IMG/VR virus record: IMGVR_UViG_3300046780_000088
Coordinates: 1 to 64,000 of that record
From: a virus
Direction: 5' to 3' (one strand)
DNA length: 64,000 bases
The position numbers were made by a program, and so were the translations under genes. Below are positions 4,175 through 58,225 of this stretch, in pieces. Every line of letters begins with the position of its first letter. Positions within the stretch are counted from its first letter, which is position 1. The notes under the pieces were generated by a model. The model was not told where the DNA came from. It ran no database searches and saw nothing but the letters and a program-made list of their open reading frames with translations.

Positions 4175-4216
4175 GGAACTTTTTTGATATTCGGTTGTCT
4201 ACCCTTGGGGAAACCC
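4175..4216 (+). promoter_or_regulatory. ECF-type promoter element, copy A (drives tRNA cluster)
   Basis: GGAACTT, 15 nt, GTCTACCC, then CTTGGGGAAACCC. One of five copies in the window with identical internal spacing. The -35/-10 pair matches the layout known for sigmaE-like ECF promoters. It points at the tRNA genes that start 150 bp downstream. Confidence 0.7.
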
Positions 4217-17226: not shown

Positions 17227-17457
17227 TTATTCCAAGGCGGATGTGATCTTCGACGCTGTCTCTTCGAGTTCACTGGCAGCTTCTTCGAGTTCACTTGCGA
17301 CTTCATCTGCGCGACTGCCTTTGTCACCGGACTGCAAAGCTTCCGGCATGTTGTCGTAGTATTCGCGTTCGGCATCAGCTTCATCTTGCACGATGCTTTG
17401 CGCTTCTTCGACCAGTGCAGCGGCGCGGGTCAACGCTTCACGACGTTGCTTGTTCAT
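17227..17457 (-). CDS. acidic coiled-coil protein, 76 aa
   Basis: Rich in Glu/Ala with heptad-like SELEEAASELEETASK at the end. Starts within the 3' end of the upstream gene (20-nt overlap). Probably a protein-binding helix; function unknown. Confidence 0.62.
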   Translation of the reverse strand: MNKQRREALTRAAALVEEAQSIVQDEADAEREYYDNMPEALQSGDKGSRADEVASELEEAASELEETASKITSALE

Positions 17458-17731
17458 CTTCTTTCTCTCTGTTGGCAGCTACGATCTTAGCAAGCTTGGC
17501 AGCACTGACTTTGCGCGCCGGGATGGATACCGAACCACGCTCGCCATCCCTGAACAGAACTTCGTAAGGGACGACGTAGAAATCATGCATACCCTTGAGC
17601 CACACCTTGACCCCGCCACGCAACAGCGCGACTCTGATGGGCCTGCCCTTGTACTGGCTTGCTGTCTCTCGTTCGATCACCGTGTAACTGTTGGGGTCCG
17701 CACCTTTGGGTACTTCCCCGATCTTTATCAT
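17438..17731 (-). CDS. first gene of the element-rich operon, 97 aa
   Basis: ATG preceded by GAAAGG. Beta-rich first half (IRVALLRGGVKVWLKG) and a basic helical tail (KVSAAKLAKIVAANREK). It is the first gene after promoter B and the first double-hairpin element. Longer open reading upstream runs through promoter sequence and is rejected. Confidence 0.65.
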   Translation of the reverse strand: MIKIGEVPKGADPNSYTVIERETASQYKGRPIRVALLRGGVKVWLKGMHDFYVVPYEVLFRDGERGSVSIPARKVSAAKLAKIVAANREKEDEQATS

Positions 17732-17740
17732 TGGCGGTTT

Positions 17741-17832
17741 CCTTTCTATTCCCGGCAAAAGCACCGGAGCAAGCGCTTGGGGTTCTATTCCCGCTGCCCA
17801 AGCAAAAGACAAGCGCTTGCCTCGATACTCTG
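17741..17832 (-). promoter_or_regulatory. double-hairpin leader element, copy 1
   Basis: On the minus strand: AGAGTATCGAGG, an 11-bp stem GCAAGCGCTTG/CAAGCGCTTGC around a long loop, then hairpin CCGG-TGCTTTTG-CCGG, then GAAAGG and the ATG. It is the 5' leader of the transcript from promoter B. Confidence 0.65.
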
Positions 17833-17833
17833 A

Positions 17834-17874
17834 GGGTTCCCCAAGGGTAGACAACACAATCAGGGAAAAGTTCC
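17834..17874 (-). promoter_or_regulatory. ECF-type promoter element, copy B
   Basis: On the minus strand GGAACTT, 15 nt, GTCTACCC, CTTGGGGAACCC. It begins right after the TAA of the 17876-18160 gene and reads into the leader element and the 17438 gene. Confidence 0.7.
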
Positions 17875-17875
17875 G

Positions 17876-18160
17876 TTAAACTCCACCGCGTGATTCATCG
17901 CCGTCAAGTTCTTCCAATGCTAACGGGCGGCGCGTTTTGAATCCACCACCATTAGTACCGGCAAGAGTTCTGTGACCAGCGAAAAAACCAGCACCGTAGA
18001 AAAACGGATCACGTTCTTGTTGACGCGGTTCGTCGGCGATCAGATCGAGAAACTTTCTCGCCTGTGCCAGCGTCTTGACGGTTGTTTTCGCCAAGACCTT
18101 CGCCTTCGCACCGGAACCCGGATGAACATAACTGTACTTTGTGACTTCGATCTGGTTCAT
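17876..18160 (-). CDS. uncharacterised 94-aa protein
   Basis: Begins MNQIEVTKYSYVHPGSGAKAK, with an Arg-rich DEPRQQERDPFF region and a Gly-rich stretch. Its stop codon abuts promoter B. No family recognised. Confidence 0.62.
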   Translation of the reverse strand: MNQIEVTKYSYVHPGSGAKAKVLAKTTVKTLAQARKFLDLIADEPRQQERDPFFYGAGFFAGHRTLAGTNGGGFKTRRPLALEELDGDESRGGV

Positions 18161-18366
18161 TACTTGTTCCTTTCTTCTGCTTCGAACTGTCGGATGATTT
18201 CGTCGGCATCAAGATCGATGACCGCTTCAATCGGTTCTGCTTCGCGCGCTGCTTGTTCGGCAGCGTGTCTTGCCTTGATCACCTTGAACCGCGCCAACTG
18301 ATCAGGTGTGAGATACGTTTCCGGCGCGCGGTACTTCAGGTACTTTGCCCAACCTTGACTCATCAT
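18160..18366 (-). CDS. helical protein, 68 aa
   Basis: Start at ATGATGAGT with AAAGGAAATC upstream. Alanine/glutamate-rich helix (ARHAAEQAAREAEP) with a DLDADEI segment. Shares one base with the next start. Function unknown. Confidence 0.62.
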   Translation of the reverse strand: MMSQGWAKYLKYRAPETYLTPDQLARFKVIKARHAAEQAAREAEPIEAVIDLDADEIIRQFEAEERNK

Positions 18367-18386
18367 GATTTCCTTTCGAACTTCTC

Positions 18387-18617
18387 TTATCGATTGTACC
18401 AAAGAATATGCGTTGCCCATTTCGGCAATACAACATACGACTGTGACGGACGGATTCTACAATTCGAAACGCCAGTTTTTGTAGCAAGATCACCGAACCC
18501 ATCATAGTCAATAAAAGAACCACTACGAACAGCATCCTTCCATTCTTTTATCGTGAACAAATCTCCGTTACGCTTTTTGATTGGTTCGAGTTCTGGAACT
18601 TCTGTCGGGTATATCAT
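18387..18617 (-). CDS. uncharacterised 76-aa protein
   Basis: Start overlaps the upstream stop as ATGA. Mixed alpha/beta sequence with KEWKDAVRSGSFIDYDGFG and a final aromatic WATHILWYNR. Looks like many small phage proteins; function unknown. Confidence 0.65.
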   Translation of the reverse strand: MIYPTEVPELEPIKKRNGDLFTIKEWKDAVRSGSFIDYDGFGDLATKTGVSNCRIRPSQSYVVLPKWATHILWYNR

Positions 18618-18886
18618 GGCAACACCCTTGTTAGTGCAGCACCGGCGATGGCAGCACATTTAGCGCGACGTGTCGCATCAGTTATGTTTTTGTCGTTCGT
18701 CGGACCTGTTGCTGCTGCCAACACATCTTGAAGTGCCTCGACCAGATCGTCGTATGCATTGTAGCGCTTGACGATCAGAGCAGCACGCTTTTGTATATCG
18801 CAAATATCGGTGAAGAGTTTTGCAATTGGAACTCCCTCTGTATCTTCAATCACTCGCTGTACCTGTTGACTAACTCGCAGTTTCAT
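18614..18886 (-). CDS. helical protein, 90 aa
   Basis: Follows GAAAGGAATCAC. Mostly helical (ALIVKRYNAYDDLVEALQDVL). The upstream 180 nt are non-coding and strongly structured, so translation may be controlled by RNA structure. Confidence 0.65.
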   Translation of the reverse strand: MKLRVSQQVQRVIEDTEGVPIAKLFTDICDIQKRAALIVKRYNAYDDLVEALQDVLAAATGPTNDKNITDATRRAKCAAIAGAALTRVLP

Positions 18887-19066
18887 GTGATTCCTTTCTA
18901 TGGTTGTGAGTACACCGTGCAGCGCGATTGAGTGAGGGGGCGTTGCCTTGTGCCTACGCTTGTAGGAAGCGGCCACAGGTCTGCATGTCTCTAATCCGTC
19001 GCGGCACCCTTTGGAAGTGACGTAACGTTTATCGCGCTGCACGCTGCACTCGCAGCGTTGAAGCAA
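18887..19066 (-). ncRNA. structured 180-nt leader or small RNA
   Basis: Perfect 12-bp pairing closes the region: GTGCAGCGCGAT (18917-18928) with ATCGCGCTGCAC (19031-19042). Inside or beside it are hairpins ACGCTGC-GAGT-GCAGCGT and CCTAC-AAGC-GTAGG (minus-strand reading). This multi-branch leader ends near the ribosome site of the 18614 gene. It could be a riboswitch-like or autoregulatory element; I recognise no known class. Confidence 0.5.
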
Positions 19067-19369
19067 TTACAGACTGCCAAGCGCACGCGGTTCGAAGTGC
19101 ATGTCACGCTCGATCTTCAAACCGAACGGCCCGCGAATCGATTCGAGTTCACGCAAACTGAAATAACCGAGTTCAGTTTCGTGACCTTCGACGCGACCGA
19201 AGAACATTATCTCACCGTCTTCTTGTACATGCCCCTCGACACCGTACCATGTCCAGTTCGACCACGGTGTGAAGAACTTCACGACCGCAACCTTGTCGCC
19301 TTCCGGGATGTGTTCAGTTGCATTCAGTGCCGGAAGCTTACGCAGAATTTCTTTGGTGATCAGTTTCAT
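19067..19369 (-). CDS. DUF2958 protein
   Basis: 100 residues. Pattern KVAVVKFFTPWSNWTWYGVEG, then FFGRVEG, ELGYFSLRELE and a final KIERDMHFEP, matching DUF2958, a plasmid and phage family of unknown function. Start from the ATG after GAAAGGAATCACA. Confidence 0.82.
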   Translation of the reverse strand: MKLITKEILRKLPALNATEHIPEGDKVAVVKFFTPWSNWTWYGVEGHVQEDGEIMFFGRVEGHETELGYFSLRELESIRGPFGLKIERDMHFEPRALGSL

Positions 19370-19578
19370 TTGTGATTCCTTTCTGCTGTTAATTCTTCGA
19401 TTCGTTTTTGCTGCCACGTTATTGCTTCAACCGCATTCTCTTGCGTTATCGGATTGTAACGTGCTGCAACTTCCGCTCTAACCTGTTTCAATATCTGGTT
19501 GTGAGCAATGCGTTCGGCAATTTGTTCCTTCGTGTCTGCTGGCGGTGACACCAACATATAATGCCGTTTGCTGTACAT
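19366..19578 (-). CDS. helical protein, 70 aa
   Basis: MYSKRHYMLVSPP then a long helix (QIAERIAHNQILKQVRAEVAARY). Preceded by a double-hairpin element and GAAAGG. ATGA overlap with DUF2958. Function unknown. Confidence 0.65.
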   Translation of the reverse strand: MYSKRHYMLVSPPADTKEQIAERIAHNQILKQVRAEVAARYNPITQENAVEAITWQQKRIEELTAERNHK

Positions 19579-19587
19579 TATATTTCC

Positions 19588-19641
19588 TTTCTCACCCGGC
19601 AAAGCACCGGAGCATCCGTTGTCGGATGCCTCGTAGCTCTA
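19588..19641 (-). promoter_or_regulatory. double-hairpin element, copy 2
   Basis: Minus strand: TAGAGCTACGAGG, stem GCATCCG-ACAA-CGGATGC, then CCGG-TGCTTTG-CCGG, then GAAAGG. The TAG is the stop codon of the upstream gene. Confidence 0.7.
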
Positions 19642-19944
19642 CTGAAGACGTTCCTCAATCCTCATAACACTTGCAGTATACCAAAGACCACCTTGGCTTA
19701 CTGGACGATCATGTTCCATGATAATACCGCTGATATTTACGCGACACCATACGCGACCTTTCTTGCTCAGATGCGGAGCTATCGGCTTCGAACAGCAATG
19801 CCAACCGGGTCGAACTTTGAATCCGTTTGTTGGATGCGATTGAGCAAAATAGCACGAACCTACTTCGAGTCGTTGACCGCGATTGATGAATAGTGAACCG
19901 AGTGAACCATCAGGGCGCACGCGAAAAAGCTTGTAAGCTTGCAT
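19639..19944 (-). CDS. uncharacterised phage protein, 101 aa
   Basis: YKLFRVRPDGSLGSLFINR at the start, then a Cys/His-containing SCYFAQSHP...HCCSKP middle and WCRVNISG. Proteins of this kind occur in many phages without known function. Flanked by two copies of the hairpin element. Confidence 0.7.
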   Translation of the reverse strand: MQAYKLFRVRPDGSLGSLFINRGQRLEVGSCYFAQSHPTNGFKVRPGWHCCSKPIAPHLSKKGRVWCRVNISGIIMEHDRPVSQGGLWYTASVMRIEERLQ

Positions 19945-19956
19945 GAATTTCTCCTA

Positions 19957-20005
19957 GCCGACTAAAGTGTCGGAGCAAGGCCCGAAGCCTTGCCTCGAAA
20001 CTCTA
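19957..20005 (-). promoter_or_regulatory. double-hairpin element, copy 3
   Basis: Minus strand: TAGAGTTTCGAGG, stem GCAAGGC-TTCGG-GCCTTGC, then CCGAC-ACTTTA-GTCGG, then GGAGAAATTC before the ATG. The TAG ends the upstream gene. Confidence 0.75.
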
Positions 20006-20500
20006 CTTGCGAACCGTGCCCAACTTCGTAAGCGTTTCTTGGTACGCCAGCGCTTCAGCACGTTGCGCATTCTTTACTTCTTTGCTGAACCCTGCACGCG
20101 CCAGTGTGTCAGGACCACCAACAAACGATTGACCGTTGATGGTGCTATTAACTCCATCAGGATCATGTTCATTGTGTGACTTAACACCTTTCCCGGCGAC
20201 ACCAACAAGCTCAATCTCGCCAGTATCACGCACCTTGATTTCTGTGATGGTGCAAAAGAAAGTCGGCATCGAAAAACTGCCAGCAGTAAATCCTTCGCTA
20301 AGGATCAAGTCGCCAACCTTGAAATCAGCGTAGCGACGTTTGCGGAGCGAATCCAGATACGTCTGTGCTGCCCTTCCACGCTTTGTAAGAACAGCGCCCT
20401 TCCCTTCACACTTGAAACAGACACCGTTGTAAACAGCATACGGCATACGTCCTGAACCACCACAACGCGAGCAACGGACGTTTTCAAAGAGCAGACCCAT
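20003..20500 (-). CDS. DnaJ-type zinc-finger protein, 165 aa
   Basis: N-terminus carries two CxxCxGxG-like knuckles (CSRCGGSG and CFKCEGKG), the DnaJ zinc-centre pattern. A beta-rich domain (FCTITEIKVRDTGEIELVGV) and helical tail follow. May bind unfolded protein or nucleic acid; exact role unknown. Confidence 0.72.
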   Translation of the reverse strand: MGLLFENVRCSRCGGSGRMPYAVYNGVCFKCEGKGAVLTKRGRAAQTYLDSLRKRRYADFKVGDLILSEGFTAGSFSMPTFFCTITEIKVRDTGEIELVGVAGKGVKSHNEHDPDGVNSTINGQSFVGGPDTLARAGFSKEVKNAQRAEALAYQETLTKLGTVRK

Positions 20501-20515
20501 GATGTTCCCTTTCTA

Positions 20516-20574
20516 GCCGACGAAAGTGTCGGAGAATAGGCGCGGTGATCTGCGCTCATTCCTCGATGCTCTCA
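20516..20574 (-). promoter_or_regulatory. double-hairpin element, copy 4
   Basis: Minus strand: GAGAGCATCGAGG, stem GAATGAGCGC/GCGCCTATTC with one A-C mismatch, then CCGAC-ACTTTC-GTCGG, then GAAAGGGAAC. Here the first hairpin includes the upstream gene's stop codon. Confidence 0.72.
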
Positions 20575-20753
20575 ACTTTTGCTTGTAATTTCGCTGCGCG
20601 ACGAACTGCTGCTTGCTGCTCATAGCGAGCATGAAATTCACAGCGCGAACCCCAAAAATTTGCACATACTGCTGGCTTACCGCATGACGAAACATACGAT
20701 GCCATACCCGCTCCGTTACGACGACGACGTGGAAACGTACAAAACGGACCCAT
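20556..20753 (-). CDS. small Cys/Arg-rich protein, 65 aa
   Basis: MGPFCTFPRRRRNG, four cysteines within 40 residues (one each in CTF, CGK, CAN and CEF) and a basic helical tail. May bind zinc. Preceded by AAAGGGAAC and the fifth hairpin element. Confidence 0.6.
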   Translation of the reverse strand: MGPFCTFPRRRRNGAGMASYVSSCGKPAVCANFWGSRCEFHARYEQQAAVRRAAKLQAKVESIEE

Positions 20754-20767
20754 GATGTTCCCTTTCT

Positions 20768-20816
20768 AGCCGACGAAAGTGTCGGAGCAAGGTCGAAACC
20801 TTGCCTCGAAACTCTA
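20768..20816 (-). promoter_or_regulatory. double-hairpin element, copy 5
   Basis: Minus strand: TAGAGTTTCGAGG, stem GCAAGGT-TTCG-ACCTTGC, then CCGAC-ACTTTC-GTCGG, then GAAAGGG. The TAG ends the upstream gene. Confidence 0.75.
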
Positions 20817-21017
20817 ATCATCAAACTCATCGTAAGGTATTTCATCGCTCTTCTGAGCGCTGAAAATGATGCGACCAAGATGTCCGTTGTCAGCATGTTG
20901 TCTACGCGCTCTCTTGATTGCTTCTGACTTTGACTTCGCACGGACAACATACTGGTATCCTTCACGTTCATCCCATGCCGGAAAAACTGGCATTGCAAGA
21001 ACTGTGTAAGTTTCCAT
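20814..21017 (-). CDS. uncharacterised 67-aa protein
   Basis: Beta-strand start (YTVLAMPVFPAWDEREGYQYVVRAKS), then a basic helix and an acidic end (EIPYDEFDD). Preceded by GAAAGGTAAGC and a hairpin element. The AKSKSEAIKRARRQ segment suggests a small nucleic-acid or protein-binding fold. Confidence 0.65.
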   Translation of the reverse strand: METYTVLAMPVFPAWDEREGYQYVVRAKSKSEAIKRARRQHADNGHLGRIIFSAQKSDEIPYDEFDD

Positions 21018-21032
21018 TGCTTACCTTTCTGT

Positions 21033-21080
21033 GCCGACAAAAACGTCGGAGCAAGCAGCGCTGCTTGCCTCGAAGTTCTC
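21033..21080 (-). promoter_or_regulatory. double-hairpin element, copy 6
   Basis: Minus strand: GAGAACTTCGAGG, stem GCAAGCA-GCGC-TGCTTGC, then CCGAC-GTTTTT-GTCGG, then AGAAAGG. Confidence 0.73.
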
Positions 21081-21122
21081 AGTCTTCGACAAACCGGGTA
21101 GCGGTGTTCACCGTTCGGTCTG

Positions 21123-21818
21123 TTACGCTTGGATGGATGCTTGACGAATCAACCGCACCGGGTATCCATATTCCTTACCGTTCCTTTCGAACACGATATG
21201 CGGAACATACTTACCATTCAGGTGCGGTCCAAAACTACGAACAACGCGCTCTTCAACGCGCAATACTGTTACGTCGTATCCGTCTTTGCCGTACAGATGC
21301 ACGACAGTACCCGGAACGATTACACGCTTGCTTTCTTCGCTACGCTCTTGCAACTGCTGCTTACCGTGCACGCGATCAGCGTTTGTGGTGATGGCCTTCG
21401 ACGTATTACGCGCCAAAATCGCACGGTTAAGAAGATTAAGACGTAAATCTCTTACCGCTTCCCGCTGATGTTCTGCTGGAGCCTCAGCGTATGCAACCAT
21501 CACTCGTTCAGTCCTAGCAAATCTCTTACCTTCCGGGATGAACTTTCTGTATTCGCCGTTCCACGCACGCGACGGAAGAATAAAACCATCCAATACCGCC
21601 TCCGCATCTTTGTCATGATTGCGAGCGTTGACCAGCAATTCGGCAGCGATTTGATCCGCGAATGTGCGGTCAAGTTCCAACGGTTGATGACGTTCGCCGC
21701 AGCACACGCCGTTGAAGTAACCGTGATCGACGGTGTAACCGTGCTTCGACAGAACTTTGGATGGCAGCGCTTGAAGCGAGCCACATATCTGACACGTTCC
21801 ACTGTGAGTCGATTTCAT
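21123..21818 (-). CDS. zinc-ribbon-containing phage protein, 231 aa
   Basis: Begins MKSTHSGTCQICGSLQ, with further Cys/His (VDHGYFNGVCCGERHQP) suggesting a zinc site. A helical middle (AILARNTSKAITTNADR) and a C-terminal beta domain (PGTVVHLYGKDGYDVTVLRV) follow. The start is the ATG after GAAAGGAATCAA; longer readings run through the hairpin element. Confidence 0.7.
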   Translation of the reverse strand: MKSTHSGTCQICGSLQALPSKVLSKHGYTVDHGYFNGVCCGERHQPLELDRTFADQIAAELLVNARNHDKDAEAVLDGFILPSRAWNGEYRKFIPEGKRFARTERVMVAYAEAPAEHQREAVRDLRLNLLNRAILARNTSKAITTNADRVHGKQQLQERSEESKRVIVPGTVVHLYGKDGYDVTVLRVEERVVRSFGPHLNGKYVPHIVFERNGKEYGYPVRLIRQASIQA

Positions 21819-21831
21819 TTGATTCCTTTCT

Positions 21832-21880
21832 GTCCGACTAAAGTGTCGGAGCAAGGCCGAAGCCTTGCCTCGAAACTCTA
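21832..21880 (-). promoter_or_regulatory. double-hairpin element, copy 7
   Basis: Minus strand: TAGAGTTTCGAGG, stem GCAAGGC-TTCG-GCCTTGC, then CCGAC-ACTTTA-GTCGG, then AGAAAGG. The TAG ends the upstream gene. Confidence 0.75.
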
Positions 21881-22150
21881 CACTGTCTTACTCGCCAACT
21901 CGCGCACCAACATACGCGCTGTTACTTTCGCCATATGCGCGCGGGGTCCGTCACTCTTACGAGGATCAAGCACGCCAGTTTCGTACAGTCTGTTCAGTAC
22001 CTTGGTAACGAAGAATAACGCATCGCTATCGTTGGTGTTGAACGGGTCTTTCGGAGCAGTTGCGTTGACGATCTTAAACGGTACGCGCGGATCGTTGACG
22101 ATCTGACCAGCGGGGTGTTCGACATTCTTGTGTGCGGGAACATGGAACAT
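21878..22150 (-). CDS. uncharacterised 90-aa protein
   Basis: MFHVPAHKNVEHPAGQ then VPFKIVNATAPKDPF and a helical end (VTARMLVRELASKTV). Start follows GAAAGGATTACC. Contains no recognised motif. Confidence 0.65.
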   Translation of the reverse strand: MFHVPAHKNVEHPAGQIVNDPRVPFKIVNATAPKDPFNTNDSDALFFVTKVLNRLYETGVLDPRKSDGPRAHMAKVTARMLVRELASKTV

Positions 22151-22163
22151 GGTAATCCTTTCT

Positions 22164-22212
22164 GTCCGACGAAAGTGTCGGAGCAACCGTTGTCGGTTGC
22201 CTCGAAACTCTA
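22164..22212 (-). promoter_or_regulatory. double-hairpin element, copy 8
   Basis: Minus strand: TAGAGTTTCGAGG, stem GCAACCG-ACAA-CGGTTGC, then CCGAC-ACTTTC-GTCGG, then AGAAAGG. The TAG ends the upstream gene. Confidence 0.75.
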
Positions 22213-23381: not shown

Positions 23382-23409
23382 AGTATAGTCCAACCACAGA
23401 CCATGTCAA
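23382..23409 (-). promoter_or_regulatory. sigma70-type promoter
   Basis: Minus strand TTGACA (23404-23409), 16 nt, TATACT (23382-23387). An inverted repeat ACTTCAA/TTGAAGT (23362-23384) overlaps the -10 and start site and could be an operator. Flanking GGTTGG/CCAACC (23346-23351, 23390-23395) also pair. Confidence 0.7.
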
Positions 23410-34586: not shown

Positions 34587-34808
34587 TCGCTCCTAAGCTT
34601 TCTTCCGGTTCCGCACAGCACAGGTTATGTGCTTTCGGTTCTGTTGCCACGCTCACCGGATCGCGCCGCGTATTGTTGGACCGATTAGGCCGCGATACGC
34701 TGGTCGTACATTTCGTCATTCGCAGTTATGCGCTGGCTCAGTTATTACGCGACTGTGCGCGTGTTGTCATCGTCTGCTATCTCGCCACGTCGAAACCTGT
34801 GCGACCCC
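34587..34808 (-). ncRNA. ssrA: tmRNA coding piece (5' half of a permuted two-piece tmRNA)
   Basis: Minus strand starts GGGGTCG (34808-34802), which pairs with CGACTCC of the acceptor piece. Next comes GGTTTCGA, the tmRNA D-loop signature, then CGTGGCG, which can pair with CGTTGCG just before the acceptor-piece T-arm (helix P2). Five bases later a GCA resume codon opens a short frame. The gene order (3' half first, then 5' half) is the circularly permuted arrangement known from alphaproteobacteria and some others. The left boundary is uncertain. Confidence 0.8.
34742..34777 (-). CDS. tmRNA proteolysis-tag reading frame
   Basis: From the presumed resume codon GCA: A-D-D-D-N-T-R-T-V-A followed by two TAA stops. 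An acidic/Asn start, a hydrophobic V-A end and tandem stops all fit tmRNA tags. Ten encoded residues is at the short end of known tags. Confidence 0.72.
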
Positions 34809-34880
34809 GCCGCGCGACACTTTGTTACCCGCATATTATTGCGCCCAACATTCACGGATGAACTATGGGAAAATGCCGCT

Positions 34881-34960
34881 CGGTGGAGTCGTCGGGAATT
34901 GAACCCGAGTCCGCAACGCCTTCACTTCCGAGTCTGCGGTCTTAATCACCGCCACAACAA
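34881..34960 (-). ncRNA. ssrA: tmRNA acceptor piece (3' half of the permuted tmRNA)
   Basis: Minus strand contains a hairpin GCGGT-GATTAAG-ACCGC, then GCGGACTCGGG, T-loop TTCAATT, CCCGA, and CGACTCC-A-CC. This is very close to the 3' end of proteobacterial ssrA, but T-stem and acceptor differ by paired changes, so it looks functional rather than an attachment-site remnant. The encoded end is ACCG, so the terminal A must be added. It is transcribed first from promoter C, then about 73 nt of spacer, then the coding piece. Confidence 0.8.
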
Positions 34961-34975
34961 TTCTTCGAACGACAA

Positions 34976-35017
34976 GGGTTTCCCCAAGGGTAGACACCAA
35001 AACCTGCAAAAAGTTCC
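34976..35017 (-). promoter_or_regulatory. ECF-type promoter element, copy C (drives tmRNA/tRNA cluster)
   Basis: Minus strand GGAACTT, 15 nt, GTCTACCC, CTTGGGGAAACCC. It begins just after the TAA of the 35019 gene and reads into tmRNA, tRNA-fMet and tRNA-Asp. Confidence 0.72.
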
Positions 35018-35887: not shown

Positions 35888-36270
35888 GACGCTACCACCA
35901 ATCCAAATTCCCTCATTGACGCTCGAACATTCACCCAACCATCGAAGCGTTCGAGCAATCGAGCGTACAGCGCACAGAAATTGCCATGATGACCCACCTG
36001 TCCCAATGCATGTGTGAGTTCATGTAACGTATACCAAGGCGACCGAAAACATTCTGGCAGATAGATTAAATGATACTTGTCATTATAGAATCCGGCACCG
36101 CCAACTGTTCGAGTAGTTCTGACTTTCGGTGCTGATCCTTTCGCACGCATATTGCTCCACACGTTTCTCGCCAAATCATTACACTCTGTGAGCGAAAGAT
36201 ATGGACATTGCATTCCTACCAATACACACCCTTCCCATGCGTAGAGCTTTGCCCGTTGGAAATCTCTCAT
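35884..36270 (-). CDS. zinc metallopeptidase-like protein (HExxH)
   Basis: 128 residues with HELTHALG at 83-90 and a third ligand candidate in the following HHGNFCALYARLL segment, typical of compact zincins such as SprT-like folds. The upstream YHLIYLPECFRSPWYTLHE layout also fits. Substrate unknown. ATGA overlap with the RNA ligase gene. Confidence 0.75.
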   Translation of the reverse strand: MRDFQRAKLYAWEGCVLVGMQCPYLSLTECNDLARNVWSNMRAKGSAPKVRTTRTVGGAGFYNDKYHLIYLPECFRSPWYTLHELTHALGQVGHHGNFCALYARLLERFDGWVNVRASMREFGLVVAS

Positions 36271-36869
36271 TCTACTTTCCCTTTCGGAACTTCATCGTTC
36301 TTTATCGTCTTCTTGAATCCGATGTTTGCCGCGTGATGCCATATCACGATGCCTTCAGGGTTCATGAATCCGGGCGCTGCTTTACTGCCATGTTGTTCGA
36401 GTTCAGCTAACGACATTCGAACCCAATCAGTTGTGAATGGACCTTGATACACGACCGGCACAACGTCGCAACATGCAGGACGTACATCCTGCCATCTGTG
36501 AGTATTGAACAGCGCGAAGCGCCTGTGATCGAGTCCGTATCCGCGTTGAATACCGCGCCCATACCACTCGCCAAAGTGTGAGCCATGTCCAAGGTCTGCC
36601 AATTCTGCCGCGTGATTAGCAACCCAAAGAGCAAACCCAAAGTTGTCGTCTTGCGTACCAATCCATCGCGTGCGCGATCCTGCACGAATGAAATGTGTGA
36701 CGCCATCAATCAACACTTGATTGTCGTACTTGATGTCGTATGCCTCGTCACCTGACACTAGCAACCGTGAATCTCGAATGCTTACTTGCGCATTCGTGCC
36801 ATCGATCTTTTCTGTGATCGTACAGTCACGCGACAGTCGCGGCATCTTGGGAAACTCAACGAATTCCAT
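36267..36869 (-). CDS. RNA ligase, Rnl2-like nucleotidyltransferase
   Basis: 200 residues after AGGAGAAAGA. Motifs in order: EKIDGTN with nucleophile Lys 21, GEWYGRG at 100-106 (motif IIIa), PEGIVIW at 171-177 (motif IV), FKKTIK at 185-190 (motif V). It joins 3'-OH and 5'-phosphate RNA ends with ATP. With RtcB it would give the phage two chemically different RNA sealing routes. Slightly shorter than T4 Rnl2, lacking a distinct C-terminal domain. Confidence 0.85.
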   Translation of the reverse strand: MEFVEFPKMPRLSRDCTITEKIDGTNAQVSIRDSRLLVSGDEAYDIKYDNQVLIDGVTHFIRAGSRTRWIGTQDDNFGFALWVANHAAELADLGHGSHFGEWYGRGIQRGYGLDHRRFALFNTHRWQDVRPACCDVVPVVYQGPFTTDWVRMSLAELEQHGSKAAPGFMNPEGIVIWHHAANIGFKKTIKNDEVPKGKVE

Positions 36870-37047
36870 TCTTTCTCCTATCACGTTTTGTGAGTACAGC
36901 AAACATTTCGTTGCATACGTCAGTACCGTGTTCCTTTTCGAACTTCGCTATATCGCACCGAGCTTCAATACGATCCATTTGCCTCAATGACGACAGTTTG
37001 TTTGTGAGTCTGTCAAACCTATCAAGCATTGATCTGGTATAGCTCAT
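36856..37047 (-). CDS. small helical protein, 63 aa
   Basis: MSYTRSMLDRFDRLTNKLSS after GGGGGAGAGAC. Basic helix with two Cys. Overlaps the ligase start by 14 nt. Function unknown. Confidence 0.62.
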   Translation of the reverse strand: MSYTRSMLDRFDRLTNKLSSLRQMDRIEARCDIAKFEKEHGTDVCNEMFAVLTKRDRRKNGIR

Positions 37048-40071: not shown

Positions 40072-41256
40072 TCAGTTTCCCTTTATGCAAAGCACTTGCT
40101 TCAATGTGTGAACGACTTCGACAAGGTCTTCCTGATTCTTCATTACGACATCGATGTCTTTGTAAGCACCGGGTATCTCATCGATCACGCCTTTATCTTT
40201 GCGACATTCGACGCCTTGTGTTTGTGCGATAAGATCGTCAACCGTGAATTGCTTGTTCGCTTCTGTGCGCGACATCCGACGACCAGCACCATGCGAACAC
40301 GAATGGTACGAGTCTGCATTTCCCTTCCCACGCACAATGTATGATCGTTGCCCCATGCTGCCGGGTATGATGCCCATATCGCCCTCTCGCGCACGAATCG
40401 CCCCTTTTCTAGTTACCAAAACGTTCTGTCCAAAATGACTTTCACGCTCGATGTAATTGTGATGGCAGTTGACCGCTTCGGTTGTGAGTTCAAACGGTTT
40501 CACCGAGTGATGCAACGCGCGCAGCACCGTATCGAGCATCGCCTTGCGGTTTGTGAGTGCATAGTCCTGTGCCCACGTTACCGCCTCGACATAGTCGCGG
40601 AAGTCTTGCGTGTTCTCCGGGAAGTATGCAAGGTCTTTGTCGGGCAACGTTATGAAGTATTCTTCCATGCGCTCGCGCGCTTTTGTGATGAAGTGACGCC
40701 CGATCTGATTGCCGATGCCACGCGATCCTGAGTGCAACATCACCCAAACGTTTTGTGACTCGTCAAGACAGACTTCAATGAAGTGATTCCCGCCACCCAA
40801 CGTGCCGATTTGCTTACCAGCGTTCTTCAACGAAACCTTTGAATCGCGCAACGGCAAATCATCGAGTCTGTCGAACAGATTTCTATCCGGCCATTGATCT
40901 TCGCCGTGCGCCGCCCCCGGCCCGAGCGGAACACCGCGCTCGATGTCGTGTCGCAATTGTGTGAGTGAGTCGGGCAGATCAGATGCAGTCAATGATGTGC
41001 GTACAGCGTTCATACCGCAACCGATGTCAACGCCAACAGCAGCAGGAATCACCGCGCGTGCAGTCACTATCACGCTACCGACTGTTGCACCAATGCCGTA
41101 ATGAACGTCAGGCATCGCCACAACTCCATGCGGATGAATGAACGGCAGTTGCGAAGCGTTGATCAGTTGCTTCATTGCTTCAGGTTCGACATCGTCTGTC
41201 CAAATGCGAACAGGACGTGCGCCGGGTGATTGTGTGACGTGCGGAAAATCAGACAT
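40072..41256 (-). CDS. rtcB: RtcB-type RNA ligase
   Basis: 394 residues. Family motifs: MPDVHYGIG at 48-56, VGVDIGCGM at 74-82 with the Mn-binding Cys 80, TLGGGNHFIE, LHSGSRGIG, CHHNY, PGSMG and the SCSHGAGRRMSR block with the GMP-accepting His. RtcB seals RNA with 2',3'-cyclic phosphate or 3'-phosphate ends, such as those left by anticodon nucleases and toxins. With eight tRNAs and an Rnl2-like ligase in the same window, tRNA repair during infection is a natural role. Confidence 0.95.
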   Translation of the reverse strand: MSDFPHVTQSPGARPVRIWTDDVEPEAMKQLINASQLPFIHPHGVVAMPDVHYGIGATVGSVIVTARAVIPAAVGVDIGCGMNAVRTSLTASDLPDSLTQLRHDIERGVPLGPGAAHGEDQWPDRNLFDRLDDLPLRDSKVSLKNAGKQIGTLGGGNHFIEVCLDESQNVWVMLHSGSRGIGNQIGRHFITKARERMEEYFITLPDKDLAYFPENTQDFRDYVEAVTWAQDYALTNRKAMLDTVLRALHHSVKPFELTTEAVNCHHNYIERESHFGQNVLVTRKGAIRAREGDMGIIPGSMGQRSYIVRGKGNADSYHSCSHGAGRRMSRTEANKQFTVDDLIAQTQGVECRKDKGVIDEIPGAYKDIDVVMKNQEDLVEVVHTLKQVLCIKGN

Positions 41257-48386: not shown

Positions 48387-48428
48387 GGGTTTCCCCAAGG
48401 GTAGACACCGAGCGGCGCGGAAAGTTCC
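48387..48428 (-). promoter_or_regulatory. ECF-type promoter element, copy D (leftward)
   Basis: Minus strand GGAACTT, 15 nt, GTCTACCC, CTTGGGGAAACCC. Faces into the minus-strand early region starting at 48178-48360. Divergent partner of copy E. Confidence 0.72.
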
Positions 48429-48907: not shown

Positions 48908-48948
48908 GGAACTTTTTGAGTTATTTGTTGTCTACCCTTGGGGAAACC
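48908..48948 (+). promoter_or_regulatory. ECF-type promoter element, copy E (rightward)
   Basis: GGAACTT, 15 nt, GTCTACCC, CTTGGGGAAACC. Reads into the plus-strand gene at 49074. Bracketed by 29-bp repeats. Confidence 0.72.
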
Positions 48949-53672: not shown

Positions 53673-53876
53673 GTGAGAGGAATGCGTAACATCGCTCTTT
53701 GGGCGTCGAACGAATCACCAAATTCGCAATCCGCGCCAATGGTTTCGATAAACCAAAAAGACGATTGTGTTGTGTTCACAGTGCGTGATGCCTTCGACAC
53801 AACAGCGATTGCCTTCATGCCGATAAAAGACTTCGTGAAGTTTGCTGCGACATTTATTCAAGAGGCTAGATCATGA
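53673..53876 (+). CDS. uncharacterised 67-aa protein
   Basis: SINQKDDCVVFTVRDAFDTT, then KDFVKFAATFIQEARS. Start is GTG 53673 or ATG 53682; the Shine-Dalgarno GAGAGGA lies close to the ATG. ATGA overlap with the next gene. Confidence 0.58.
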   Translation: MRGMRNIALWASNESPNSQSAPMVSINQKDDCVVFTVRDAFDTTAIAFMPIKDFVKFAATFIQEARS

Positions 53877-54316
53877 CAGGCTGGACTGATGCAGCAAGAG
53901 CCGCGAGTCTTGCAGTTCGTGAGGCTGAAGCGAAGAATCACAATGCAAATGGAAAAAGAGCAGGGCAGGAAACACATCATCAAGCAATTCGTGAAGTATC
54001 AAAATGGTATCACGGCGACATTAATGCGATAAGAGGACAATCAATAAATGCAAAGAGTTTGATGACTCCAAGTTGGGCAGTAACGAATTTAAAGTCAGCT
54101 TATAATTATGCAACTCAAGCATCATACAAAAAATCTTTAATTCCTGAACGCAAAGCGATATTCTCAGTTAGACCGATAACAAAAAATTCAACTCGTATGT
54201 CGGAAGGTCGCGGTCGCGGTAGTATGTCAAAAGAAGTTATTGCTTCTCCATATCGGATGAGTATTGTGTCAAGATTACCGCAAGCTCGCGGCCATGCATC
54301 AAGAGGAAAATATTGA
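53873..54316 (+). CDS. MTGWTD-family protein 1
   Basis: 147 residues. The first 40 follow the shared module MTGWTDxARxxSLxxR...NHNANG...GQETH. The rest is a unique, basic, Ser/Asn-rich domain without recognised fold. First of six such genes around the terminase gene. Confidence 0.7.
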   Translation: MTGWTDAARAASLAVREAEAKNHNANGKRAGQETHHQAIREVSKWYHGDINAIRGQSINAKSLMTPSWAVTNLKSAYNYATQASYKKSLIPERKAIFSVRPITKNSTRMSEGRGRGSMSKEVIASPYRMSIVSRLPQARGHASRGKY

Positions 54317-54489
54317 TGACAGGCTGGACTGATGACGCGCGGAAGTCGTCGCTCGATGCACGTCGGAACAAGAAGACAGGAAAAAAGAAGACGTACGTTC
54401 GCAATCGCGTAGCGAAAACTCCGCGCGAAAAGGCAATCGATAAATTTGGTGAAGCCTATGTCGAAACTTTCATGGATGAACTGAAATGA
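54316..54489 (+). CDS. MTGWTD-family protein 2, 57 aa
   Basis: MTGWTDDARKSSLDARRNKK, then a basic, short C-terminus (KKKTYVRNRVAKTP) and an acidic helix. It keeps the first half of the shared module but lacks the HNANG/GQE part. Confidence 0.65.
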   Translation: MTGWTDDARKSSLDARRNKKTGKKKTYVRNRVAKTPREKAIDKFGEAYVETFMDELK

Positions 54490-54878
54490 CAGGATGGACT
54501 GACCAAGCACGCGAGGCGTCGATTGCTGCACGCCACAATGCCAATGGCAAAGCACCCGGTCAGGAAGCGCACCATGCCGCGTTGAAAGCGGCGCAGACGC
54601 GCAGAGCGAATGTCGCGCACAACGATCACCGTCATGCTGTGAAAGCTGCTGAAGATGCGTTGCTTCGTGCACGTTCGCTTCATGAAGTTCCGAAGTGGGC
54701 GAACCTGAAAGCTGTGAGCAACTTCTATCTTGCCGCTGCACAATCGCATGGTCGATACCAAGTCGATCACATCGTACCGTTGAACGGTCGCAAAGTGATG
54801 GGTTTGCATGTGGAGAATAATATGCAACTGTTGACTCCGTGGCAGAATAAATCAAAAAGCAACAGGTTCAAATCATGA
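54486..54878 (+). CDS. MTGWTD-family HNH endonuclease
   Basis: 130 residues: N-terminal shared module, then a C-terminal HNH fold (YQVDHIVPLNGRKVMGLH, ENNMQLLTPWQNKSK). HNH enzymes beside terminase genes can cut DNA at packaging; here the N-terminal module may recruit it. Direct neighbour of two module-bearing genes and the terminase. Confidence 0.78.
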   Translation: MTGWTDQAREASIAARHNANGKAPGQEAHHAALKAAQTRRANVAHNDHRHAVKAAEDALLRARSLHEVPKWANLKAVSNFYLAAAQSHGRYQVDHIVPLNGRKVMGLHVENNMQLLTPWQNKSKSNRFKS

Positions 54879-55195
54879 CAGGCTGGACTGACGCTGCGCG
54901 TGAAGCGAGCTTGGCAGTTCGTGAAGCCGAAGCGAAAGATCATAACGCCAACGGGAAAGCTCCCGGACAGGAAACGCACCATGCCGCATTGAAGGGCGCA
55001 GTGACGCCGACATGGGCAACACATACTGAAGCTGCACGAAAGATGGCAGCGTTGCAATCGACAAGACCGCATTCAATTGAAAAACGTTTCGGTAGTAACG
55101 GGCCAAATCCTGATCAATTGACAGCATATAAAGCAGAAGTGAAGTCTTGGAATTCTGCATATCGAAATGCGAAGAAGGGATTGATGCCTAGATGA
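54875..55195 (+). CDS. MTGWTD-family protein 4
   Basis: 106 residues. Shared module complete (DHNANGKAPGQETHHAALK), then a helical KAEVKSWNSAYRNAKKG tail. ATGA overlaps with both neighbours. Function unknown. Confidence 0.68.
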   Translation: MTGWTDAAREASLAVREAEAKDHNANGKAPGQETHHAALKGAVTPTWATHTEAARKMAALQSTRPHSIEKRFGSNGPNPDQLTAYKAEVKSWNSAYRNAKKGLMPR

Positions 55196-56631
55196 GCCAA
55201 GAAGTAATAGCACGCACACCAGAAAAAGTAGTAGGAAGACCAAGACTCGATACACCGCCGCCCGGAACCGATCTGTTGACGATGTCGAAATTTCAGAAGC
55301 GCGTGCTTCGCGTTCCTGAAGAAGTCGATTTGTTTCTTGGTGGTGGTCGTGGTGGCGCGAAGTCATACACGATGGTCTTGCTCGCTCTTCGGCACGTCGA
55401 ACAGTATGGTCCAAAGGCACGAATTCTTTACATCCGGCAAACACATGCGGGGTGCGCAGACTTCGAATCTTTGTGTCTCGAAGTTTTTTCGTTGTTGTAT
55501 GGTCGCACCGTAAAATACAATTCTACGAAGGGACTATTCAAGTTCCCGAACGGCGCGACTCTCGAAATCAATCAGCTTGAAACAGTATCAGACTATACGA
55601 AATTTCAGGGGCGCTCATTTACGCTGCTGATGATTGACGAAGCAGGGCATTATGCGATGCCTGATATGTTGGACAAGCTTCGTTCGAACTTGCGTGGACC
55701 GGCAGACATGCCTACACGCATTGTGATCGCAGCAAATCCGGGTGATGCAGGACACCATTGGTTAGCTTCACGGTACGTTTTTCGTGCGGCACCGTGGACT
55801 ATCTTCAAGGAACCGAACTCGCAACGTTTCTTTTTGTATGCGCCTTCAACGTTCCTAGACAATCCATTCATCAACCAAGCTGAATACAAGGCTCAACTTG
55901 TATCGTCTTGTCCAAGCGATCCTGAACTGTTGCGCGCGTGGCTTGATGGTGATTGGGCGATTGCTCGCGGTGCGTACTTCGGTGGATGTCTTGAAGAATC
56001 GCGTAACGCGGTAGACTTCTGGAATTACAAGATACCTGCTGGTTGGGATTGGTGGCTTGCGCACGATTATGGTTCGACCGCTCCGTCAGTAACGTACATC
56101 GTTGCGAAGTCACCGGGTGGCGAAGGACCGGATGGAAAATGGTATCCGCGCGATTCACTTGTACTGGTCGATGAATTTGCAACGAACGAAGCTGGACATC
56201 TGAACAAGGGACTTGGTTGGATGGTTCCGCGACTCGCAGAAGAAATCATCAAGCATTTGTGTATGCCGTGGAATGTTGCCGCAACTGGTGTCGCTGATGA
56301 TGCTTGCTTTGCCAAAGGTGGACATTCTCGCGGTTCGATTGCTGATGAGTTTGCACGATGTGGATTGATCTTTGTTCCTGCCAAGAAGGGTGATCGTCTT
56401 TCAGGCTTGACAACGTTGAAGCGTTTGTTAGGCGATGCAGGACAGATGGATGTACCCGGTTTGTATATCTCGCGTTCGTGTTCGTATTTTTGGGCTACCG
56501 TTCCATACTTGGCGCGCGATCCTCGTAAGATGGAAGATTTGGATTCAAAGGGACCGGATCACGCTGCTGATGCAGCACGGTACGGTGTATTGCGCGAAGA
56601 GAGAAGCGCAACAATGAAGGCGATGTTCTGA
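55192..56631 (+). CDS. terminase large subunit
   Basis: 479 residues. ATPase: Walker A LGGGRGGAKS at 49-58 and Walker B LLMIDEAG around 145-152. Nuclease: AHDYGSTAPS with the first Asp, and DHAADAARYG near the end. It drives DNA packaging into the prohead and cuts the concatemer. Start overlaps the preceding gene as ATGA. Confidence 0.93.
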   Translation: MSQEVIARTPEKVVGRPRLDTPPPGTDLLTMSKFQKRVLRVPEEVDLFLGGGRGGAKSYTMVLLALRHVEQYGPKARILYIRQTHAGCADFESLCLEVFSLLYGRTVKYNSTKGLFKFPNGATLEINQLETVSDYTKFQGRSFTLLMIDEAGHYAMPDMLDKLRSNLRGPADMPTRIVIAANPGDAGHHWLASRYVFRAAPWTIFKEPNSQRFFLYAPSTFLDNPFINQAEYKAQLVSSCPSDPELLRAWLDGDWAIARGAYFGGCLEESRNAVDFWNYKIPAGWDWWLAHDYGSTAPSVTYIVAKSPGGEGPDGKWYPRDSLVLVDEFATNEAGHLNKGLGWMVPRLAEEIIKHLCMPWNVAATGVADDACFAKGGHSRGSIADEFARCGLIFVPAKKGDRLSGLTTLKRLLGDAGQMDVPGLYISRSCSYFWATVPYLARDPRKMEDLDSKGPDHAADAARYGVLREERSATMKAMF

Positions 56632-56642
56632 AAGGAAAACCA

Positions 56643-56786
56643 ATGACAAATTTGACGGTTGTAAATCCGAATGAACTGAATCCTGATACATCACCGCCGC
56701 CAGTTGTGATAGGTGAAGCAAGCGAATCGCCGGATGATTCTGATGCTGATGATGTTGTTGATGTGCCGCAAGGCTCTAAGGTGTAA
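56643..56786 (+). CDS. small acidic protein, 47 aa
   Basis: MTNLTVVNPNELNPDTSPPP, then an acidic Asp-rich stretch. GAAAGGAAAACCA upstream. Probably disordered; function unknown. Confidence 0.55.
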   Translation: MTNLTVVNPNELNPDTSPPPVVIGEASESPDDSDADDVVDVPQGSKV

Positions 56787-56790
56787 ATGA

Positions 56791-57081
56791 ATGTCTATGA
56801 CCTTAGATCGGTTCAAAACTGAACCACACAAAATCTATTCGTCAGGTTGGTTTGTATTCTGCTTAGTGATTATAGCAGCTTTGGTTTTGGAATTGCTGCA
56901 TCAACAAACAATAATTCTCGATCAAACAAAGATCGATCAAGAACTCCAAACGATAATCAACAATGAAGAAAATATAATTGCTCACCAAGGTCAGTATGAT
57001 CAGATAATCAAGATGCTTCTTTCAAACCAAGAAAACATCATTAAGAAGCTCGATGACCACAACACCGGAAAATCGAAATGA
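56791..57081 (+). CDS. membrane-anchored coiled-coil protein, 96 aa
   Basis: One TM helix (VFCLVIIAALVLELLHQQ), then an Asn/Gln/Glu coiled coil (QTKIDQELQTIINNEENII). Followed at 4-nt overlap by a second coiled-coil membrane protein; they may interact. Function unknown. Confidence 0.63.
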   Translation: MSMTLDRFKTEPHKIYSSGWFVFCLVIIAALVLELLHQQTIILDQTKIDQELQTIINNEENIIAHQGQYDQIIKMLLSNQENIIKKLDDHNTGKSK

Positions 57082-57602
57082 TGACAGCTACTACTACACA
57101 ACAGAGACAACGTAAAAAAGACGCACGAAAAGTAATCACCACTGCACAGACTACAGCGAAGATGTTGAAGAGCAATGCAGATGCAGTTGCTTCGGCGACA
57201 GCAAATGTATTGAAGAGTAACGCCAAGCTTGTTTCTGATGCTTTGGAAGACACGGCAAAAAATACAGCAGATATTGTTTCAAAAGCAATTGAAACTGCTA
57301 ACCATAAAAATGAAGAAATATTGCGACAACGATCTGATGAAATTGTTCTTAAAACAGAAGCGCATTTTGACAAGGCTTCAGACCGAATCGATTCATTGGA
57401 AGATAGAATTGATGGAGTAGAAAAGAAGGTTCAGGACAGAATTGATAAGGTTGAAAAGAAGGTTGATGAAGGAAATGAAGATACGAAGAAGGTTTTGGCA
57501 ATAGTTAGTGCAGGAAAAATTGGTGGCAAATTCATGGGTTGGCTTGCCGCGCTGATTGCTTCTATTGCTGTTGCATGGTCGTATCTTATTCATGGAAAAT
57601 AA
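57078..57602 (+). CDS. coiled-coil protein with C-terminal TM
   Basis: 174 residues: long Ala/Lys/Asp helical region (about 25-145, including DRIDSLEDRIDGVEKKV) and a C-terminal hydrophobic helix (FMGWLAALIASIAVAWSYL). Tail-anchored architecture. Lies between packaging genes and the portal; role unknown. Confidence 0.65.
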   Translation: MMTATTTQQRQRKKDARKVITTAQTTAKMLKSNADAVASATANVLKSNAKLVSDALEDTAKNTADIVSKAIETANHKNEEILRQRSDEIVLKTEAHFDKASDRIDSLEDRIDGVEKKVQDRIDKVEKKVDEGNEDTKKVLAIVSAGKIGGKFMGWLAALIASIAVAWSYLIHGK

Positions 57603-57620
57603 ATTTGGAGTGTGAGCAAA

Positions 57621-57815
57621 ATGTCATCGACTCGCCCACCGAAAACTCTCGATTACGATGCACAAGAAGTTAGCATGTTGAGAGATTTGTATACCAAGAT
57701 GGCAAAGAATAATGAAATGGATCAGGATAGCGAAGGCTTCGTCACCGTCGAACAAGTTTTCGACGAATTTGCGCGAGTGCGCGATTTCTACAAAATGAAG
57801 CGAAGGAAACATTAA
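57621..57815 (+). CDS. uncharacterised 64-aa protein
   Basis: MSSTRPPKTLDYDAQEVSML, helical (RDLYTKMAKNNEM), then VEQVFDEFARVRDF. An in-frame GTG at 57612 is an alternative start. Function unknown. Confidence 0.6.
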   Translation: MSSTRPPKTLDYDAQEVSMLRDLYTKMAKNNEMDQDSEGFVTVEQVFDEFARVRDFYKMKRRKH

Positions 57816-57816
57816 A

Positions 57817-58224
57817 ATGACAGGATGGACAGACGAAGCGAGGGCCGCATCGCTCGCAGTGCGTGAGGCTGAAGCAAAAGACCACAACGCAAACGGCAAA
57901 GCACCGGGACAAGAAACACATCATCAAGCAATTAAGGCGGCGAGTAATTTAACTCGTCAGCATTTCGTTGCTGCCGCGAATCAGTTGCGCGAATCTGGTG
58001 CAAGCGCTGAAGCTGTTTCGCGCGCTGCTAATGCATTCGCTATGACGAATCCTAATTTTGATCGTGGTCGTTTTGTTGCTGCCGCTACAAAGGGACTGAC
58101 GAAGGGACTTGATATTCGCTCGCAATCAAACAAAGGATTCGCAAAAGCTTCGCGTGTTGCAGCTAACGTGATGAAAAATTATTCGAGCGGCAGTCCCTAT
58201 TTGACCCCTTCTAGGAGTCGATAA
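57817..58224 (+). CDS. MTGWTD-family protein 5
   Basis: 135 residues. Module complete (MTGWTDEARAASLAVREAE, DHNANGKAPGQETHH). The rest is Ala/Arg/Ser-rich and basic, unlike other family members. Adjoins the sixth member with one base between. Confidence 0.7.
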   Translation: MTGWTDEARAASLAVREAEAKDHNANGKAPGQETHHQAIKAASNLTRQHFVAAANQLRESGASAEAVSRAANAFAMTNPNFDRGRFVAAATKGLTKGLDIRSQSNKGFAKASRVAANVMKNYSSGSPYLTPSRSR

Positions 58225-58225
58225 C

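What the first reader, a model, noticed from the sequence alone, without database searches (positions are those of the whole stretch)
17741..22212. Eight copies of a covarying double-hairpin element at gene junctions
Minus-strand form: (T)AGAG-TTTCGAGG, hairpin 1, CTCCGAC-loop-GTCGG hairpin 2, AGAAAGG, start codon. Hairpin 1 changes sequence but keeps pairing (GCAAGGC/GCCTTGC, GCAACCG/CGGTTGC, GCATCCG/CGGATGC, GCAAGCA/TGCTTGC, GAATGAGCGC/GCGCCTATTC, GCAAGCGCTTG/CAAGCGCTTGC), strong covariation. In five copies the upstream stop codon is the TAG inside the element. It ends at the ribosome site, so it likely controls translation, RNase processing or mRNA stability of each gene. I know no named family like it.
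Basis: seen in the sequence. Interest (0 to 1): 0.85.

Follow-up and report, generated by a model that had tools for sequence, protein, structure and literature searches.

The report
Repeated RNA junction element in phage
A bacterial virus carries eight copies of a small folded RNA element, each placed between the stop signal of one gene and the start signal of the next; the folds are real and unlike any catalogued RNA family, but what they do (most likely separating and tuning translation of neighbouring genes) is not yet shown.

Summary
A covariance model finds exactly eight copies, all on the minus strand between 17,732 and 22,212 (E ≤ 1e-9), and none elsewhere in the 86.8-kb virus record. 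Each copy ends at the Shine-Dalgarno of the next gene. Five copies supply the upstream gene's UAG stop.

Hairpin 1 covaries convincingly (permutation p = 0.0004). Hairpin 2 is supported by one double change shared by two copies (p = 0.036). It is fully paired in seven copies and 4 of 5 in the eighth, but with eight copies p = 0.077. The element can therefore adopt two near-equal folds, and a ribosome parked on the UAG would force the double hairpin.

No homologue was found in IMG/VR, 85k genomes, INPHARED, PLSDB or Rfam. The copies precede non-homologous small genes, in long spacers within an otherwise compact genome.

Best reading: a cassette-like gene-junction RNA (stop, hairpins, ribosome site) that insulates and tunes translation. 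RNase processing and PeSL-like recombination are the main rivals. Function is inferred only.

The parts
22151..22212 (-). Element copy 1 (c22k2): UAG stop/5' strand 22212-22201, hairpin 1 22200-22183 (GCAACCG-ACAA-CGGUUGC), hairpin 2 22181-22166, SD AGAAAGG, then AUG at 22150
21819..21880 (-). Element copy 2 (c21k9): UAG stop, hairpin 1 GCAAGGC-UUCG-GCCUUGC, hairpin 2 CCGAC-ACUUUA-GUCGG, SD, AUG at 21818
21018..21080 (-). Element copy 3 (c21k1): 5' strand AGAAC with loop GUUUUU (double change in the third helix); upstream gene ends at a UAA about 40 nt before the element
20754..20816 (-). Element copy 4 (c20k8): UAG stop, hairpin 1 GCAAGGU-UUCG-ACCUUGC
20501..20573 (-). Element copy 5 (c20k5): hairpin 1 wholly replaced (GAAUGAGCGC/GCGCCUAUUC, one mismatch), its 5' arm overlapping the end and UGA stop of the upstream gene; 3' half identical to copy 4 through the start codon
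19945..20005 (-). Element copy 6 (c20k0): UAG stop; SD is AGGAGAAA instead of AGAAAGG
19579..19641 (-). Element copy 7 (c19k6): UAG stop; hairpin 2 CCGGU/GCCGG; 5' strand AGAGC with loop GCUUU
17732..17832 (-). Element copy 8 (c17k7): 11-bp hairpin 1 with 30-nt loop, hairpin 2 CCGGU/GCCGG; no upstream stop codon inside; lies just downstream of a promoter-like repeat
17846..17874 (-). Promoter-like repeat GGAACTT...TGTCTACC (ECF-sigma-like spacing) directly upstream of copy 8
23382..23409 (-). sigma-70-like promoter TTGACA-16-TATACT (11/12) upstream of the whole cluster
   Evidence: consensus match only
19366..22150 (-). Seven small, mutually non-homologous genes (90, 231, 67, 65, 165, 101, 70 aa), each preceded by a copy of the element
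17438..17731 (-). 97-aa gene preceded by copy 8

Best explanation
It is a gene-junction RNA element of a polycistronic phage transcript. It supplies (i) the upstream gene's stop codon, (ii) a strong hairpin 1 whose base lies 12 nt after the first base of that UAG, about where the leading edge of a terminating ribosome sits, (iii) a second hairpin a few bases before (iv) the next gene's Shine-Dalgarno. Shown: the anatomy, the conservation of hairpin 1 as a fold rather than as a sequence, the conserved complementarity of hairpin 2, and a third complementarity between the 5' strand and hairpin 2's loop. Inferred: hairpin 1 blocks post-termination ribosomes from sliding into the next gene, so each gene is started independently. 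The 5' strand/loop pairing acts as a toggle: when no ribosome sits on the UAG the long hairpin (or pseudoknot) forms and leaves more open RNA before the SD; when one does, the double hairpin forms. The unit is also a modular cassette end, so unrelated genes can be joined without disturbing each other's translation.
For: Eight copies, only between genes and only on the coding strand, each ending at SD+AUG. Six of eight element junctions are 55-60 nt (the other two 105 and 144 nt), against a median of 10.5 nt for 30 other minus-strand junctions, so the spacer looks actively kept. UAG stops: 5 of 8 genes before elements against 2 of 52 others, Fisher p = 0.0002. Hairpin-1 covariation p = 0.0004; all 18 pairs of the three-helix structure form in all 7 aligned copies, with 7 pairs changed on both sides, 0 of 500 shuffles as good. 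The two folds differ by 0.4-3 kcal/mol in seven copies and 5.5 in the eighth; blocking the 5' strand as a terminating ribosome would raises hairpin 2 probability to about 0.7-1.0 in all copies. Structure just downstream of a stop codon is reported to lower translational coupling (Chemla et al., as cited in PMC12548453). The genes are not paralogues, so the element was kept or gained separately from the genes.
Against: No expression data. The third helix is not significant by permutation (p = 0.077), and one copy has a C.A mismatch in it. The predicted SD accessibility does not change consistently between the two states. Copies 3 and 8 have no stop codon in the element, so ribosome sensing cannot apply to them in the same way. 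No homologues were found to test conservation.
Confidence: 0.36

Rival explanations
1. The elements are RNase III-type (or other RNase) processing sites that cut the early polycistronic mRNA into single-gene messages with protective hairpin ends, as in phage T7.
For: The long-hairpin form is an irregular duplex of about 17 pairs with two conserved mismatches and a stable loop, sited between genes just before the SD. Many copies in one early operon resembles T7 (own knowledge).
Against: Conservation of hairpin 2's 3' strand (GUCGG, co-changing to GCCGG) is not needed for a long-hairpin substrate. Copy 5's folding is mixed. The phage has no RNase III of its own (the host would supply it).
Confidence: 0.24
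2. A DNA-level mobile or recombination junction, like the PeSL cassettes of T4-type phages: repeats at gene borders let small genes be swapped in and out, and the RNA stem is a by-product or a bonus.
For: Repeats flank unrelated genes. Copies 4 and 5 are identical from hairpin 2 through the first codons while hairpin 1 differs, which looks like recombination or conversion at the repeat. A phage carrying a distant relative of one cluster gene (L132) has its own seven-copy junction repeat TAACTAACTAACTTACT-SD in the corresponding gene cluster.
Against: Compensatory changes that preserve RNA-type stems (including G-U pairs) and strand bias are not explained by DNA recombination alone. No promoter is found inside the elements, unlike PeSLs.
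Confidence: 0.2
3. An RNA operator: a phage protein binds hairpin 2 (invariant UUU loop, CCG/CGG stem) and regulates all eight genes together.
For: The hairpin 2 stem base and UUU are invariant across copies while hairpin 1 is free to vary.
Against: The UUU invariance is equally explained by pairing with the 5' strand. No RegA or CsrA homologue found (the RegA search had no positive control).
Confidence: 0.1
4. A put-like antiterminator RNA that modifies RNA polymerase, since HK022 put is also a double hairpin of about 70 nt.
For: Two adjacent stem-loops in a nascent phage RNA; copy 8 lies just after a promoter-like repeat, as putL does after PL.
Against: Eight mostly intercistronic copies rather than one leader copy per operon; hairpin 1 sequence is arbitrary whereas put depends on specific bases and bulges that contact RNA polymerase.
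Confidence: 0.05

Closest known systems
PeSLs (promoter early stem-loops) of T4-type phages (Arbiol 2010; Comeau 2014; cited through PMC4503421, originals not held)
   Same: Multi-copy short structured repeats at borders of small shuffled phage genes
   Different: No promoter inside; the element carries stop codon, two hairpins and SD; covarying three-helix complementarity
Phage T7 RNase III processing sites (own knowledge)
   Same: Several hairpins at gene junctions of an early polycistronic mRNA, just upstream of start codons
   Different: Second hairpin with conserved complementarity; stop codon built in; cleavage untested
HK022 putRNA (PMC9378689)
   Same: About 70-nt phage RNA with two adjacent stem-loops
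   Different: put: two copies per genome, in leaders, with base-specific contacts to RNA polymerase; here eight mostly intercistronic copies with free hairpin-1 sequence
Ribosome-controlled (translational-coupling / attenuation) RNA structures, e.g. f1 gene VII-IX hairpin, rpmI-rplT (reviewed in PMC12548453)
   Same: A terminating ribosome could change a fold close to the next start site; +52 nt spacing in rpmI-rplT is similar
   Different: Those are single cases in which structure inhibits the next start site; here one element is reused eight times and the SD is not clearly masked in either fold
Three-frame stop repeat TAACTAACTAACTTACT-SD of L132 (this work)
   Same: Multi-copy junction repeat combining stop codons and SD in the corresponding small-gene cluster of a distantly related phage
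   Different: No covarying hairpins identified; some copies have a sigma-70-like promoter

Membership tests
Any Rfam 15 family | Covariance-model match at gathering score, or E<5 in a sensitive scan | tested here: not met
PeSL | Multi-copy stem-loop at small-gene borders | tested here: met
PeSL | Early promoter within the cassette | tested here: not met
   no sigma-70-like site within the copies; one ECF-like repeat lies outside copy 8 only
PeSL | Gene shuffling bounded by the element in related phages | not testable with these tools
   no close relatives found in the collections
HK022 put | Two stem-loops | tested here: met
HK022 put | Leader position downstream of early promoters, one copy per operon | tested here: not met
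   seven of eight copies lie between genes with no promoter between
HK022 put | Conserved bases/bulges in both stems that contact the RNA polymerase beta' zinc domain | tested here: not met
   hairpin 1 is replaced wholesale in copy 5; feature taken from PMC9378689
Intrinsic terminator | G+C-rich hairpin followed by a U tract | tested here: not met
   none of the hits falls on an element
RNase III site | Irregular duplex of about 20 bp at gene junctions | tested here: inconclusive
   about 17 pairs in the long-hairpin fold, near-equal in energy with the double hairpin
RNase III site | Cleavage in vivo or in vitro | not testable with these tools
   needs experiment

The most novel reading that the evidence does not exclude
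A reusable ribosome-sensing RNA switch: one element, copied to eight gene junctions, carries the stop codon of the gene before and the ribosome site of the gene after. Its 5' strand (covered by a ribosome standing on the stop codon) competes for hairpin 2's loop and stem, so each gene's initiation responds to whether its neighbour is being translated at that moment.
Probability: 0.15. Interest if true: 0.8.

Novelty: new variant of a known kind. Interest (0 to 1): 0.52.

Why it matters
Repeated, structure-conserving RNA elements that combine stop codon, hairpins and ribosome site at many junctions of one operon are rare. If functional, this would be a natural, modular part for joining genes so that their translation is insulated or sensed, and it would give a molecular basis for how phages add and swap small early genes. 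It would also be a compact, testable two-state RNA.

Tried and rejected
Loop-SD pseudoknot (hairpin-2 loop CUUUC with GAAAG): possible in three copies but not better than shuffled loops (p 0.05-0.66); rejected as a general feature. Three-way junction closed by GUUUC/GAAAG: folded in two copies but broken in copies 3, 5, 7 and 8 by inspection; rejected. Terminator or sigma-70 promoter inside the element: none. Tandem duplication of gene+element units: genes are not paralogous. Homologues: patterns of decreasing strictness in IMG/VR gave only chance matches, mostly inside genes; GTDB genomes gave 0 matches and then 7 chance matches without hairpin 1; INPHARED and PLSDB chance only; portal- or gene-related contigs and XcP1 have no match to the model. 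The primase query found no relatives.

Full report
Observation. The window is part of an 86,782-bp virus record, a tailed phage with a portal up to about 53% identical to its nearest IMG/VR relatives and 35-37% to Xanthomonas/Stenotrophomonas and similar phages. A covariance model (R1) built from six copies finds exactly eight elements in the record, all minus strand, 17,732-22,212, with the two copies not used in building it at E = 2e-10 and 1e-9. The hairpin-2-plus-SD pattern occurs 7 times against none in 100 shuffles.

Anatomy, 5' to 3' on the mRNA: (U)AGAGU-UUCGAG / hairpin 1 (7-11 bp, sequence free, loops ACAA, UUCG, GCGC or longer) / U / hairpin 2 CCGAC-RYUUUN-GUCGG or CCGGU-GCUUU(U)-GCCGG / 3-6 nt / AGAAAGG (AGGAG in one copy) / AUG. 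In five copies the UAG is the upstream gene's stop. In copy 5 the stop (UGA) lies in hairpin 1's 5' arm, which is also coding, yet the opposite arm matches it in nine of ten pairs. In copies 3 and 8 the upstream gene ends earlier.

Covariation. Hairpin 1: 49 of 49 pairs, permutation p = 0.0004 (0.0014 on distinct stems). Hairpin 2: p = 0.036, resting on one change shared by two copies. A third helix between AGAGU and the hairpin-2 loop ACUUU pairs 39 of 40 positions (AGAAC with GUUUU, AGAGC with GCUUU), but with eight related copies the permutation p is only 0.077. Counted together on seven aligned copies (for copy 8, hairpin 1 was cut to its outer seven pairs with a dummy loop, so its loop carries no information), all 18 pairs form in all copies and seven pairs have double changes; 0 of 500 shuffles reach this and slid registers fall to 33-53% paired. 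The same strand can instead extend hairpin 1 into one long hairpin. The inner pairs of that fold do not covary (column 7/35 breaks in one copy) while hairpin 2 does, so the data favour either a pseudoknot of all three helices or a two-state switch over the long hairpin alone. The copies are paralogues, and the shuffles do not correct for relatedness.

Energetics. Long-hairpin and double-hairpin folds are within 0.4-3 kcal/mol in seven copies; copy 8 favours the long hairpin by 5.5. If the 5' strand is kept single, as under a ribosome terminating at the UAG, hairpin 2 forms with probability 0.68-1.0 in every copy. Hairpin 1's first G-C pair starts 12 nt after the first base of the UAG. Predicted SD exposure does not shift consistently between states, so the direction of any switch is open.

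Context. The genes preceded by the element are small, mostly ORFan and not related to each other. Element junctions are 55-60 nt in six cases, against a median near 10 nt for other minus-strand junctions, and UAG is used by 5 of 8 genes before elements against 2 of 52 others (Fisher p = 0.0002; simple gene calls of my own). Copies 4 and 5 are identical from hairpin 2 through the first codons but differ in hairpin 1, which points to recombination at the element. No sigma-70 promoter or terminator lies in the copies; one good sigma-70-like promoter lies upstream of the cluster and an ECF-like repeat lies just before copy 8.

Relatives. No homologous element was found in IMG/VR, GTDB genomes, INPHARED or PLSDB, related records or Rfam. 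The tools warn that records very near the window may be left out. A 64-kb contig (L132) with a homologue of the 231-aa cluster gene has, at its own junctions, a different seven-copy repeat with stops in several frames followed by an SD. That suggests junction cassettes are a recurring solution in such clusters.

Mechanism. Shown: fold conservation, position, junction spacing, UAG donation. Inferred: translation insulation by hairpin 1 (structure right after a stop codon is reported to reduce coupling: Chemla et al., cited in PMC12548453) and a ribosome-dependent toggle through the third helix. RNase processing, PeSL-like gene shuffling and a protein operator remain open; put-like antitermination is unlikely.

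Verdict. A real, previously uncatalogued (in the collections searched) multi-copy structured RNA element; a new variant of the known kind 'repeated intercistronic phage RNA/junction cassettes'; function unproven.

Noticed in passing
4175-4203 (+), 17846-17874 (-), 34989-35017 (-), 48400-48428 (-), 48908-48936 (+): Five copies of GGAACTT-N14-TGTCTACCCTTGGGGAA (last 17 nt identical), with the form of an ECF-sigma promoter (GGAAC...GTCTA): before a five-tRNA cluster, before element copy 8, directly before the tmRNA, and a divergent pair near 48.4-48.9 kb. No clear phage sigma factor was found.
   Followed up: partly
34594-34973 (-): A permuted (two-piece) tmRNA gene in a phage, Rfam RF04321, 90 bits, tag ANDEMYDQRIAA, with its own promoter-like repeat.
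   Followed up: partly
18884-19070 (-): Untranslated stretch of about 180 nt in the same cluster that folds well beyond shuffles (z -3.3), closed by a perfect 12-bp stem GUGCAGCGCGAU/AUCGCGCUGCAC around about 115 nt; no Rfam or convincing phage match. Possible structured RNA.
   Followed up: partly
L132:6199-10159: Seven-copy junction repeat TAACTAACTAACTTACT-SD-ATG (stops in several frames), some copies with a sigma-70-like promoter, in a distantly related phage's small-gene cluster.
   Followed up: partly
53871-58266 (+): Six related gene starts (ATGACAGGCTGGACTGA...) of paralogous small genes scattered around the terminase gene.
   Followed up: no
40072-41256 (-) and 36267-36902 (-): RtcB-type RNA ligase and a second RNA ligase in the same phage.
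   Followed up: no
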